Source: Candidatus Avelusimicrobium pullicaecorum (GTDB lineage Bacteria; Elusimicrobiota; Elusimicrobia; Elusimicrobiales; Elusimicrobiaceae). Taken from it: 64,000 bases of DNA. The translations under genes were made by a program, and so were the position numbers. Position 1 is the first letter of the stretch, and each line of letters begins with the position of its first letter. The DNA lies in the NCBI GenBank assembly GCA_944322825.1, contig CALUQD010000003.1, positions 1 to 64,000 of the forward strand, given 5' to 3'. Positions 45,790 through 53,370 of this stretch are shown one piece after another. The notes beneath the pieces were generated by a model. It did not search any database. It saw only the letters and a program-made list of their open reading frames with translations, and had not been told where the DNA came from.

Positions 45790-46047
45790 ATGGCGCTGGG
45801 ACCTTTTAGCAAACAGGACCATTTGCAGATTACCACCTTGGGCTTAGAATTCGCCGTTTCGGAAATTCTATGCGTGTGGGCTGGTTTTTGGGCGGATAAG
45901 AAACTGGGGTCCTTTCCGTGGGGCGTGGTAGCCGGTGCAGCCGTTGGGTTTGCGCTGGGGTTTTACCAAATTCTGCGGGCCGCCAAACAGATGGCGCAGG
46001 ACAACGCCAAATTAAAAAAGGCAGAACAAAAAGATGGACGTCGTTGA
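45790..46047 (+). CDS. AtpZ/AtpI-family ATP synthase accessory protein
   Basis: This 85-residue protein has two hydrophobic helices (AVSEILCVWAGFWADKKLG and WGVVAGAAVGFALGFYQILRA) and a charged C-terminal tail, which is the AtpZ/AtpI pattern. Family members assist c-ring assembly or Mg uptake. It opens the atp operon and overlaps atpB by 14 bp. The ATG has only a weak CGGGG upstream. Confidence 0.8.
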   Translation: MALGPFSKQDHLQITTLGLEFAVSEILCVWAGFWADKKLGSFPWGVVAGAAVGFALGFYQILRAAKQMAQDNAKLKKAEQKDGRR

Positions 46048-46795
46048 AATTATTTCTCATCACATTTTAGACCACGACTGGGGGGTTATCCTCGGCGGGT
46101 TTCGTCTTCCGATTACGACGCACACGGTGACGCTCTTTGCCGTCAGCCTTGTGCTTTTGTTTGGGTTGCACTGGATTTCGCTGGGCCGCCAAAGCCGCAC
46201 GGGCCGCCTGCTGACTACGCTGACCGAAGAATATGTAGCCTTTATCCGCGACGGAATGGTGCTGCCCAATATGGGCGAAGAAGGGCGCCGGTTCCTGCCG
46301 TATTTTTGCACGCTATTTTTGTTCGTTTTGTTTTGCGCGTTGGCAGGTTTGATTCCCAATATGAAAACCGCCACCGCCAACATTTCCGTCACCGCCGCGT
46401 TAGCGTTATGCTCCGGCGGGCTTATTTTGTACTGCGGGCTTAAATTCCACGGATTTGTAGGCTTTTTAAAAGGCTTTGTCCCTTCGGGTACGCCGGGGTG
46501 GCTGGTGCCGCTTTTGTTCCCGCTGGAAGTATTGAGTTTGGTCATCAAAGTGTGCGTGCTGGCGATCCGTTTGTTTGCCAATATGCTTTCGGGGCATATG
46601 GTGCTGATTTGTTTGCTGCTCATTATTTTTATTGTCGGGCAAATGCACATTGCCGCCGGAGCCGGGGCGTTTTTACCGGCGATGGCGCTGGAACTGTTTA
46701 TGACGTGCCTGGAATTGCTGGTGGCGTTTTTGCAGGCGTATGTGTTTACGCTTTTAACCAGCATTTTTGCGGGTTCGGTCATACACACGCATTAA
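46034..46795 (+). CDS. atpB: ATP synthase F0 subunit a
   Basis: Subunit a forms the proton half-channels against the c-ring. The 253-residue membrane protein has the conserved helix with the essential Arg in SLVIKVCVLAIRLFANMLSGHMVL and the C-terminal helix AFLQAYVFTLLTSIFAG. Five to six membrane spans are apparent. It overlaps the upstream AtpZ-like gene and precedes atpE by 47 bp. Confidence 0.96.
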   Translation: MDVVEIISHHILDHDWGVILGGFRLPITTHTVTLFAVSLVLLFGLHWISLGRQSRTGRLLTTLTEEYVAFIRDGMVLPNMGEEGRRFLPYFCTLFLFVLFCALAGLIPNMKTATANISVTAALALCSGGLILYCGLKFHGFVGFLKGFVPSGTPGWLVPLLFPLEVLSLVIKVCVLAIRLFANMLSGHMVLICLLLIIFIVGQMHIAAGAGAFLPAMALELFMTCLELLVAFLQAYVFTLLTSIFAGSVIHTH

Positions 46796-46842
46796 TTTAA
46801 AAAATCTATCAAAAGGGCTTTAGCCCAAAAGGAGAATAATAT

Positions 46843-47073
46843 ATGGAACTCGTAGCACTGAAATACATCGCCGCCGGTATTGGCGCGGGACTCACCGTAA
46901 TTGGTGCGGGTCTTGGTTTGGGTAAAATCGGTAATGCGGCCTTGGAAGGTACGGCCCGTCAGCCGGAAGCTGGTTCGGATTTGCGCTCTACGATGATTAT
47001 TATTGCCGCGTTGTTGGAAGGGGCCGCCATGTTGGGTTTGGTCATCTGCCTGCTGACGCTGGTCCTCAAATAA
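46843..47073 (+). CDS. atpE: ATP synthase F0 subunit c
   Basis: The 76-residue hairpin protein has the Gly-rich helix 1 (AAGIGAGLTVIGAGLGLGKIG), the polar loop ARQPEAGSDLRS and helix 2 with the ion-binding Glu in ALLEGAAML. The Gln and Glu-Ser signature of sodium-type rings is absent (GLGK where GQG is expected; EG not ES), so proton coupling is predicted. AAGGAG precedes the start. Confidence 0.95.
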   Translation: MELVALKYIAAGIGAGLTVIGAGLGLGKIGNAALEGTARQPEAGSDLRSTMIIIAALLEGAAMLGLVICLLTLVLK

Positions 47074-47092
47074 CCCATAAGGGAGTATACTG

Positions 47093-47587
47093 ATGGAAAA
47101 TTTGTTGAAGCCGGACTACGGCGTGTTGGTGCTTACCATCTGCAACTTTTTGCTGTTGGTGTATTTGCTTAAAAAATTTGCGTGGAACCGCATTATCGGC
47201 GGGTTAGAACAGCGCGAAAAGCAAATCGCCGACGATAAACAGCAAGCGCAGGACGCCCGCGCCGCCGCGGAAACACTCAAACGCGAATTGGACGAAAAAT
47301 TGGCCCAAATTTCGGATGAAGCCGCTAAAAAAATGGCCGAAGCCGTAAAATTGGGCGAAACCCAGAAAGACCAAATTCTCGCCGCCGCCAAGGAACAATC
47401 CGAGCGGTTGCTGGAACAAGCCAAAACGCAAATTGAAGCGGAAAAAAACAAAGCCCTGGCCGACGTTCGCGGCGAAATTGCGCGCACGGCGGTGCTGGCT
47501 GCCTCGAAAGTGGTGCAGCAGCAAATGAGCGAAGAATCCGCCCAGCAAGTAGTGGACCGCGTTTTACAAGAAATTAAAGCGAAGTAG
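47093..47587 (+). CDS. atpF: ATP synthase F0 subunit b
   Basis: Subunit b is the peripheral stalk. The 164-residue protein has one N-terminal membrane helix (YGVLVLTICNFLLLVYLLKKFAWNRI) followed by a long charged coiled coil (EQREKQIADDKQQAQDARAAAETLKREL and onwards) ending in SEESAQQVVDRVLQEIK. GGGAG lies upstream. It is followed by atpH three bases later. Confidence 0.95.
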   Translation: MENLLKPDYGVLVLTICNFLLLVYLLKKFAWNRIIGGLEQREKQIADDKQQAQDARAAAETLKRELDEKLAQISDEAAKKMAEAVKLGETQKDQILAAAKEQSERLLEQAKTQIEAEKNKALADVRGEIARTAVLAASKVVQQQMSEESAQQVVDRVLQEIKAK

Positions 47588-47590
47588 CCT

Positions 47591-48118
47591 ATGAACAGTT
47601 CAGACAGAATAGCGGTGCAGCGTTACGCCGCCGCTTATGACGGGTTAAGCACCACCAACGAACAAGCCGAGCGCCGCGCCGAAGATTTGCGCGCCGCCGC
47701 CCGCGCGCTGGATGCCGTGCGCAGTTATATGACCAGCCCGCGCGTGATGACGCAGCAAAAAAAGCAGACGGTCCGTGCCGCTTTGCAGCGCGCGCCGGAA
47801 ACGGCGTCGTTCGTGGAACTGTTGATTGACGCCAAACGGTATGCGTTGTTGGATGCCGTTTCCCGCCGGGTGGGGGAACTGTTGGACGACCGGCTGGGCA
47901 TTGTGCGGGCGGAGGTTGTGTCGGCCCGTGCATTAAGCGCCGCGCAGCAAAAAGAAACACAAGACGCTCTTTCGTCGCGCTACGGCGGGCGGGTAGAAGC
48001 GGTTTTTACGGTGGACCCCGCGCTGCTAGGCGGGCTTAAAATCCGCTGCCGGGGCGAACTGATAGACGGCAGCCTGCAAGGGCGTTTAGCCAAACTGCAG
48101 GAAGAATTGACACATTAA
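47591..48118 (+). CDS. atpH: ATP synthase F1 subunit delta
   Basis: Delta links the F1 head to the b stalk. The 175-residue protein has the OSCP-like helical N-domain (RIAVQRYAAAYDGLS) and the C-terminal KIRCRGELIDGSLQGRLAKLQEEL, close to the family's VDPxLLGGLxIRxGxxxxDxSxxGRLxxL pattern. It starts three bases after atpF with no clear ribosome-binding site, suggesting translational coupling. Confidence 0.93.
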   Translation: MNSSDRIAVQRYAAAYDGLSTTNEQAERRAEDLRAAARALDAVRSYMTSPRVMTQQKKQTVRAALQRAPETASFVELLIDAKRYALLDAVSRRVGELLDDRLGIVRAEVVSARALSAAQQKETQDALSSRYGGRVEAVFTVDPALLGGLKIRCRGELIDGSLQGRLAKLQEELTH

Positions 48119-49666
<1,548 letters not shown>

Positions 49667-50605
49667 ATGGACGCTAAAACGAAGAAAAAATACCTGGTTA
49701 CCGGCGGCGCCGGGTTCATCGGCAGCAACATTGCCAAAACCCTGGAAGCCCAAGGCCACGAAGTGACCGTGCTGGACGATTTTTCCAAAAACGGGCATTT
49801 CAAAAACTTGATTGGTTTTAAAGGGGACGTCATCACCGCGGATTTATTTGAATATATGCCCACGGATATGTATTTTGACGCCATCTTCCACGAAGCTGCC
49901 ATCACCGATACCACCGTTATGGACCAAAAGGCTATGATGGAACAAAACGTGGAAGCGTTCAAAAACCTGTTGAACTTCGCCGCGGAAAACGATATTAAAA
50001 AAGTTATTTACGCTTCTTCCGCCGCGACCTACGGCAACGGCCCCGTGCCCAATGTGGAAACGCAGCCCACCCACCCGGAAAATGTGTATGGATTTTCCAA
50101 GGTGATTATGGATAATGTCGCCCGCCAATTTGCGGAAGACAATAACGATATGACCATTATCGGCTTGCGCTATTTCAACGTGTACGGCCCGGGGGAATAC
50201 TTTAAAGGCAAGATGGCCAGTATGGTGTACCAGCTGTACAACCAGATGAAAGCCGGCAAGCGCCCGCGCGTATTTAAATACGGCGAACAACAGCGCGATT
50301 TTGTGTACGTCAAAGACATCGTCAAAATCAACCTGTGCGCGCTCAATAACGGCAAGGAAACCGGCGTGTATAACGCCGCCACCGGCATTCCGCGCGACTA
50401 TAACGCCATCATCGCGTGCCTGAATAAAGAACTGGGCACAAAACTGGAACCCGAATACATCGACAATCCGTATCCGTTCTTCCAGCTTAAAACACAGGCG
50501 GATATGACGCTGGCGAAGGAAAAACTCGGCTACGAGCCGGATTATTCGCTGGAAGCCGGCATCGCCGACTATGTGTCCATCTTGGAAGGCCGCAACCAAA
50601 AATAG
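49667..50605 (+). CDS. ADP-glyceromanno-heptose 6-epimerase-like SDR, inside the atp operon
   Basis: The 312-residue NAD(P)-dependent epimerase has the Rossmann motif VTGGAGFIGSNIAKTL, DAIFHEAA, KKVIYASSAATYGNG, the catalytic YxxxK in NVYGFSKVIMD, and RYFNVYGPGEYFKGKMASMVYQLYNQMKAGKRPRVF and RDFVYVKDI, all close to HldD. HldD makes the heptose precursor for lipopolysaccharide core. The gene sits exactly between atpA and atpG (zero and nine bases away), breaking the usual atpAGD order. Another sugar epimerase of the same subfamily is possible. Confidence 0.85.
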   Translation: MDAKTKKKYLVTGGAGFIGSNIAKTLEAQGHEVTVLDDFSKNGHFKNLIGFKGDVITADLFEYMPTDMYFDAIFHEAAITDTTVMDQKAMMEQNVEAFKNLLNFAAENDIKKVIYASSAATYGNGPVPNVETQPTHPENVYGFSKVIMDNVARQFAEDNNDMTIIGLRYFNVYGPGEYFKGKMASMVYQLYNQMKAGKRPRVFKYGEQQRDFVYVKDIVKINLCALNNGKETGVYNAATGIPRDYNAIIACLNKELGTKLEPEYIDNPYPFFQLKTQADMTLAKEKLGYEPDYSLEAGIADYVSILEGRNQK

Positions 50606-50614
50606 GATTATTCC

Positions 50615-52956
<2,342 letters not shown>

Positions 52957-52959
52957 GCT

Positions 52960-53370
52960 ATGGCCAAAAAACTGACCCTAAACCTGATTACGCCGGAAAA
53001 ACAGCTTATCTCCAACCTGCAGGTGGATATGGTTATCCTGCCTGCTTTGTTGGGGGAGATGGGCATTTTACCTGGGCACGTCAAAACGATTGTGCAGCTG
53101 GGCATGGGTTCCCTGCGCTATAAAAAGGACGGGAAGGAAGAAGAATTCGCCGCGTTGGGCGGATTTGTGGAAGTGTTAAACGACGTGGTCAGCGTATTTG
53201 CGGAAGGGGCGGCCCTCGCCGATGAAATCGATGAGGAAGCCGAAAAGCAAAAAATCAAAGCCGCCAAGGAATCCCTCTCCCGCAAGGACGCCGATATTGA
53301 TTTTGAGCTGGCGGAACTTGAAATCAAACAGGCCATCGCCCGTATGAAAGTGAAAAAGAAACATATGTAA
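52960..53370 (+). CDS. atpC: ATP synthase F1 subunit epsilon
   Basis: Epsilon couples the c-ring to gamma and can inhibit hydrolysis. The 136-residue protein has the N-terminal beta-sandwich (LTLNLITPEKQLISNLQVDMVILPALLGEMGILPGHVKTIVQLGMGSLRY) and a C-terminal helical domain that is charged (EIDEEAEKQKIKAAKESLSRKDADIDFELAELEIKQAIARM). It starts three bases after atpD and ends the operon. Confidence 0.95.
   Translation: MAKKLTLNLITPEKQLISNLQVDMVILPALLGEMGILPGHVKTIVQLGMGSLRYKKDGKEEEFAALGGFVEVLNDVVSVFAEGAALADEIDEEAEKQKIKAAKESLSRKDADIDFELAELEIKQAIARMKVKKKHM

What the first reader, a model, noticed from the sequence alone, without database searches (positions are those of the whole stretch)
49667..50605. 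HldD-like epimerase gene embedded between atpA and atpG
The ATP synthase order is otherwise canonical, yet a heptose-epimerase-type SDR has zero and nine bases to its neighbours and its own AGGAG inside atpA. It must be cotranscribed with atp genes, coupling envelope-sugar synthesis to ATP synthase expression, or it is a neutral insertion.
Basis: partly seen in the sequence, partly recalled or inferred. Interest (0 to 1): 0.5.

Follow-up and report, generated by a model that had tools for sequence, protein, structure and literature searches.

The report
Heptose epimerase inside the ATP-synthase operon
In gut and groundwater bacteria of one class, the enzyme predicted to finish a sugar of the outer membrane is encoded in the middle of the ATP-synthase operon, an old and stable arrangement of an ordinary enzyme rather than a new system.

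Summary
A complete 312-aa hldD gene (49667-50605, +) lies between atpA and atpG with 0 and 9 intergenic bases and its own AGGAG within the end of atpA. It scores over the curated cut-off for ADP-glyceromanno-heptose 6-epimerase (314.9 against 274.6 bits). It keeps four positions recalled as important in E. coli HldD, and its closest solved relative is Helicobacter pylori HldD.

It is the only hldD found in this 87%-complete genome. hldA, hldC, a gmhB-type and a gmhA-like gene are elsewhere, gmhB and hldA beside lipid A and KDO-type genes.

The arrangement is not recent. Of 123 Elusimicrobiota genomes with this hldD type, 119 have it upstream of atpG on the same strand (118 within 177 bases), across five families. 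The rest: one contig break, one without atpG, two with hldD elsewhere. One genus lost hldD, leaving atpA and atpG adjacent; one of its two genomes has an E. coli-type hldD elsewhere.

Best reading: an ordinary HldD, moved long ago and co-expressed as an atp cistron. Regulatory coupling of envelope heptose to ATP synthase is possible but untested. Other unrelated genes in the same operon of some relatives suggest a permissive operon rather than a specific link.

The parts
49667..50605 (+). [quoted passage not shown]
49656..49660 (+). AGGAG, probable ribosome-binding site of hldD, inside the atpA coding end
   Evidence: GGAG-type motif at 79 of 102 distinct atpA-hldD junctions against 3.2% of random atpA stretches
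48131..49666 (+). atpA, ATP synthase alpha subunit, directly upstream
50615..51517 (+). atpG, ATP synthase gamma subunit, directly downstream (9 bases)
50018..50020 (+). codon of Ser118 (E. coli HldD Ser116 position)
   Evidence: same in 137 of 137 sequences of this HldD type; codon place counted; role recalled
50087..50089 (+). codon of Tyr141 (E. coli Tyr140 position, catalytic base as recalled)
   Evidence: 137 of 137; codon place counted; only the title of the two-base mechanism paper was seen
50204..50206 (+). codon of Lys180 (E. coli Lys178 position, second catalytic base as recalled)
   Evidence: 137 of 137, against N, E and gap in three SDR paralogues; codon place counted
46034..48118 (+). 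atpB, atpE, atpF, atpH: upstream cistrons of the same run
51538..53370 (+). atpD and atpC: downstream cistrons of the same run

Best explanation
[quoted passage not shown] In an early ancestor of this class (Elusimicrobia) the gene came to lie between atpA and atpG. It is now transcribed with the atp genes and translated from an RBS in the end of atpA, so it is expressed as one more housekeeping cistron. It is usually the only hldD, so loss costs the L-glycero heptose unless another HldD is acquired, and a clean move out of an important operon is rare; so the position persists. Shown: identity by profile and key residues; single copy found; rest of the pathway elsewhere; class-wide position; purifying selection. 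Inferred: co-transcription, translational coupling, enzyme activity, and that persistence needs no specific regulatory benefit.
For: TIGR02197 equivalog 314.9 bits over the 274.6 cut-off. The four best PDB hits are HldDs, 3sxp H. pylori E 9.7e-74 first. Positions of E. coli S116/Y140/K144/K178 are the same in 137 of 137 sequences, partly redundant. Exactly one TIGR02197 match over cut-off in 28 of 30 genomes of the genus tested, own genome included. Own genome: HldA 369.9 bits over cut-off, HldC 188.8 over cut-off, GmhB-type HAD 129.8 over a broad family's cut-off, GmhA-like 190.9 under the 209.45 cut-off, three PF01075 matches (137.1, 29.9, 26.6 bits). Contig C56 reads lpxK, lpxL-like, gmhB, DUF3108, hldA, kdsB-like, without hldD. 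Linked in 119 of 123 genomes. 91 of 102 distinct atpA-hldD junctions have a gap of at most 20 bases. No + strand terminator-like match between 49222 and 51155 and no + strand promoter-like match between 46603 and 51485; totals are 16 against a shuffled 14.5 and 10 against 6.6. HldD and AtpA trees both place f4 with f3 and f9. G076, which lacks the atp copy, has an E. coli-type HldD elsewhere; so does G152, which has no atpG found either.
Against: No transcript, protein or enzyme data. The genome is 87% complete and could hide a second hldD, though 99%-complete congeners G011 and G031 also show one. The GmhA match is under its curated cut-off. Five atp-linked copies of f4 and f7 (G142, G176, G173, G162, G154) score 259.6-272.8 bits, just under the HldD cut-off. 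G045 has both an atp hldD and an E. coli-type one. G097, G147, G133 and G150 keep an hldA over cut-off but show no HldD over cut-off, so some relatives do without it. Contig C56 is only 6,782 bases, so the cluster is cut by its end. On the HldD tree two f1 genomes (G195, G198) and f13 (G109) fall with other families, so descent is not cleanly vertical. Persistence across a class is also what selection for co-expression would give.
Confidence: 0.78

Rival explanations
1. Adaptive coupling: selection keeps hldD in the atp operon so that supply of LPS-core heptose, an ADP-activated and ATP-costing sugar, rises and falls with ATP-synthase synthesis.
For: Same junction and strand in 119 of 123 genomes over five families, with tight spacing in 91 of 102 and a GGAG-type motif in 79 of 102 distinct junctions.
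Against: G126 (f3) and G189 (f9) have hldD away from atpG and genus g10 lost it. The other heptose genes of the own genome are on other contigs. Five of seven f7/f8 loci also carry an unrelated ORF before hldD, and three of three checked carry a PilZ gene after atpG, so entry is not specific to heptose genes.
Confidence: 0.15
2. HldD, or its cistron between alpha and gamma, acts on the synthase itself, as a translational spacer that sets alpha to gamma stoichiometry or as an assembly factor.
For: Position between the 3-copy alpha and 1-copy gamma cistrons, kept over a class.
Against: Missing in g10, with 12-15 bases between the atpA and atpG hits; hldD elsewhere in G126 and G189; the catalytic positions are kept, as expected for an enzyme.
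Confidence: 0.03
3. A different sugar-nucleotide epimerase (GalE-like SDR) rather than HldD.
For: SDR family shared with GalE, dTDP-glucose dehydratase and others; some linked orthologues in f4 and f7 fall just under the HldD cut-off.
Against: The window protein is over the HldD cut-off and far under the other equivalogs listed. The Lys178 position is kept in 137 of 137 and in none of three paralogues. The own genome has separate weaker SDR relatives. No other HldD over cut-off was found in the genome.
Confidence: 0.04

Closest known systems
HldD / RfaD (TIGR02197), H. pylori type (PDB 3sxp)
   Same: Over the equivalog cut-off; nearly full-length match; S, Y, K and K positions kept.
   Different: Genomic place: within the atp operon, not in an LPS cluster or next to hldA/hldE.
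E. coli-type HldD beside hldA in Endomicrobia (G120, Endomicrobium proavitum by exact chromosome length 1,588,979, PMC4505116)
   Same: Same predicted reaction; directly followed by hldA and by kdsB-like and kdsA-like genes (L160; the last two named by eye).
   Different: Another HldD clade, about 34% identical to the window protein, in a canonical LPS neighbourhood.
Bacterial atp operons with an extra gene (e.g. an unknown gene between gamma and beta in Rhodopseudomonas blastica; recalled, not checked)
   Same: A non-subunit gene between F1 cistrons.
   Different: Here a known enzyme family of envelope synthesis, at the alpha/gamma junction, over several families of a class.

Membership tests
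[quoted passage not shown]
   314.9 bits
[quoted passage not shown]
   GGAGFIGSN in the translation; S118, Y141, K145 in 137 of 137
[quoted passage not shown] coli (role recalled) | tested here: met
   K180 in 137 of 137 of this type and 6 of 6 of the E. coli type; 0 of 3 paralogues
[quoted passage not shown]
   HldA and HldC over cut-off and GmhB-type HAD beside hldA: met; GmhA-like SIS protein only under its cut-off (190.9 against 209.45 bits)
[quoted passage not shown]
   needs purified protein and substrate
Cistron of the atp operon | Same strand, short gaps, no terminator- or promoter-like match on the + strand at its two junctions | tested here: met
   gaps 0 and 9; no + strand match between 49222 and 51155 (a simple consensus scan)
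Cistron of the atp operon | Found on one transcript with atpA and atpG | not testable with these tools
   needs RNA data

The most novel reading that the evidence does not exclude
Across this class, the last step of LPS-heptose activation is kept under the control of the ATP-synthase operon because co-expression is selected: the cell scales outer-membrane core synthesis with its energy-coupling machinery through one polycistronic mRNA.
Probability: 0.15. Interest if true: 0.55.

Novelty: new variant of a known kind. Interest (0 to 1): 0.33.

Why it matters
It shows that a classic operon can hold an enzyme of an unrelated envelope pathway through the diversification of several families of a class. 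It also warns that pathway searches limited to LPS clusters would miss hldD in this class.

Tried and rejected
A recent insertion in this genus was rejected: linked in f1, f2, f4, f7 and f8. A second canonical hldD in the own genome was sought with the curated model and not found. A foreign origin by composition was not supported: hldD GC 0.500 and GC3 0.667, against atpA 0.545/0.673 and atpG 0.498/0.647. Trees were built from rows that I chose: 46 HldD and 43 AtpA rows out of 176 loci held. The linked HldDs as one clade are rejected on the HldD tree (AU p 0.013), because the unlinked f3, f9 and f13 sequences fall inside. The corresponding test on AtpA, with the g10 genomes counted in, is not rejected (p 0.094). 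Counting events does not clearly separate one gain with later moves from two gains at the same junction; I prefer one gain because junction and strand are identical. The HldD tree has several open forks and long rows, and its deep order is unsure. Paper searches did not turn up this arrangement (search listings only; the library lacks most subscription papers, and I opened only the papers, so this does not show that it is unpublished). The E. coli catalytic roles were not confirmed in a paper text: only the title of Morrison and Tanner 2007 was seen, in a reference list.

Full report
What is there. The window (G000, contig C3) carries a run on the + strand: an AtpZ-like gene, atpB, E, F, H, A, then hldD, then atpG, D, C. 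hldD starts on the base after the atpA stop codon and ends nine bases before atpG. AGGAG lies at 49656-49660 inside atpA.

Identity. The protein scores 314.9 bits against the HldD equivalog TIGR02197 (cut-off 274.6). No other curated cut-off among the 25 families shown (of 32 matched) is reached. Its four best solved relatives are HldDs, H. pylori 3sxp first (E 9.7e-74; E. coli 1eq2 6.3e-51). Positions that I recall as important in E. coli HldD (S116, Y140, K144, K178) are the same in 137 of 137 aligned sequences of this type; these are partly redundant, as some genomes are held in two collections. They are also the same in 6 of 6 of a second, E. coli-like type. The K178 position is N, E or gap in three SDR paralogues of the own genome. 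Not every linked relative passes the HldD cut-off: five of f4 and f7 score 259.6-272.8 bits.

Pathway. In the own genome, HldA (C56, 369.9 bits, over cut-off), HldC (C48, 188.8 bits, over cut-off), a GmhB-type HAD (C56, 129.8 bits) and a GmhA-like SIS protein (C25, 190.9 bits, under its cut-off of 209.45) are present, with three PF01075 matches, two of them weak. Contig C56 reads lpxK (opposite strand), then lpxL-like, gmhB, DUF3108, hldA and a CTP_transf_3 (kdsB-like) gene, with no hldD; the contig ends soon after, at 6,782 bases. With the HldD model, the own genome has one match over cut-off. Of 30 genomes of the genus tested, own included, 28 have one, G045 has two, and G050 has none because its contig starts inside atpG.

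Distribution. Kinship and family codes are the tool's; I call the class Elusimicrobia from the titles of named loci. Of 207 genomes (handles G000-G206), 123 hold this hldD type. In 119 it is upstream of atpG on the same strand: 61 of 63 of the window's genus, 13 of 13 of other f1 genera, 36 of 40 of f2, two of two of f4, six of six of f7, one of one of f8. In 118 the hits are at most 177 bases apart; G193 has 1,185 bases, which hold another ORF. Of the other four, G053 is split over two contig ends, G109 (f13) has no atpG found, and G126 (f3) and G189 (f9) have it on another contig. In f2, G076 and G097 (genus g10) have atpG but no such hldD, and in G096 and G100 neither was found. Among 80 named public loci, the best 80 of 360 relatives, atpA is the next searched gene upstream in 80 and atpG follows in 79; the contig of the other ends.

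Losses and replacements. In g10 the atpA and atpG hits are 12 and 15 bases apart. G076 carries an E. coli-type HldD on another contig but no HldA over cut-off; G097 has an HldA over cut-off but no HldD match at E 1e-33. G147 (f5), G133 and G150 (f18) also have atpA next to atpG, an HldA over cut-off and no HldD over cut-off. G152 (f6) has an HldD over cut-off that groups with the E. coli type, and no atpG found. In f10, G120 has an E. coli-type HldD directly before hldA. G120 is Endomicrobium proavitum by its exact chromosome length (contig length; PMC4505116, whole text read).

Age. The AtpA tree (43 rows) puts f4 with unlinked f3 and f9 (85/83), apart from f1, f2, f5, f7 and f8 (96/95). The HldD tree (46 rows) also joins f4, f3 and f9 (100/99), and f2, the window's genus and f7 are each one group. 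That fits mostly vertical descent. Against it, two f1 genomes (G195, G198) fall among other families on the HldD tree at unstarred forks, and f13 falls inside the class. Holding all linked HldDs as one clade is rejected (AU p 0.013), so unlinked genes lie inside the linked group. I read this as one early entry with later moves or losses; two entries at the same junction are not excluded.

Expression anatomy. Of 102 distinct atpA-hldD junctions, 91 have a gap of at most 20 bases and 22 have no gap or overlap. A GGAG-type motif is upstream in 79 of 102, against 3.2% of random atpA stretches. Over the operon, promoter- and terminator-like matches are near the shuffled expectation, and none on the + strand lies at either hldD junction. 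This supports, and does not prove, co-transcription. Within the genus, hldD dN/dS is 0.020-0.046 in the 7 of 10 comparisons with unsaturated dS (two of the seven give identical values and are probably one genome), close to atpA and lower than atpG in each.

Is it special coupling? Some relatives carry more foreign genes in the same operon. In five of seven f7/f8 loci (not L162, L163) a related 141-164 aa ORF with a hydrophobic start lies between atpA and hldD. In three of three checked of these loci a PilZ gene lies between atpG and atpD. G193 has a DUF4932 gene between hldD and atpG, G198 a 178-aa ORF between atpA and hldD, and G189 a 232-aa ORF between atpG and atpD. Spacing over 250 bases occurs in 6 of 132 atpA-hldD, 1 of 132 hldD-atpG and 5 of 132 atpG-atpD loci, against 1 of 96 atpB-atpE and none at the other five junctions (loci partly redundant). 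The operon looks permissive in its F1 part.

Verdict. A real, old and stable gene order holding an ordinary enzyme. New, as far as these searches show, as a place and not as a kind of system.

Noticed in passing
L138:2715-3143, L139:3226-3720, L140:3251-3682, L141:3450-3881, and L165 (families f7, f8): A related ORF of 141-164 aa with a signal-like start lies between atpA and hldD; five copies align over most of their length (30-59% identity). The four searched have no Pfam match.
   Followed up: partly
L139:5573-5953, L140:5660-6079, L141:5718-6023: A PilZ-domain protein (known as a c-di-GMP receptor family) is encoded between atpG and atpD in three f7/f8 loci.
   Followed up: partly
L159:5851-6837 (G045) and L157:4135-5121 (G076): An E. 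coli-type HldD, a different clade from the atp one; G045 has both types, G076 only this one.
   Followed up: partly
L142:5001-6116 (G193): A DUF4932 protein gene between hldD and atpG.
   Followed up: partly
L133:5112-5810 (G189): A 232-aa ORF with a signal-like start between atpG and atpD in a genome that keeps hldD elsewhere.
   Followed up: no
L145:2307-2843 (G198): A 178-aa ORF between atpA and hldD, without a Pfam match over cut-off.
   Followed up: no
L156:5012-6529 (G097 contig C27): An ORF that looks like a fused HldA-HldC (HldE-like), in a genome with no HldD match at E 1e-33.
   Followed up: no
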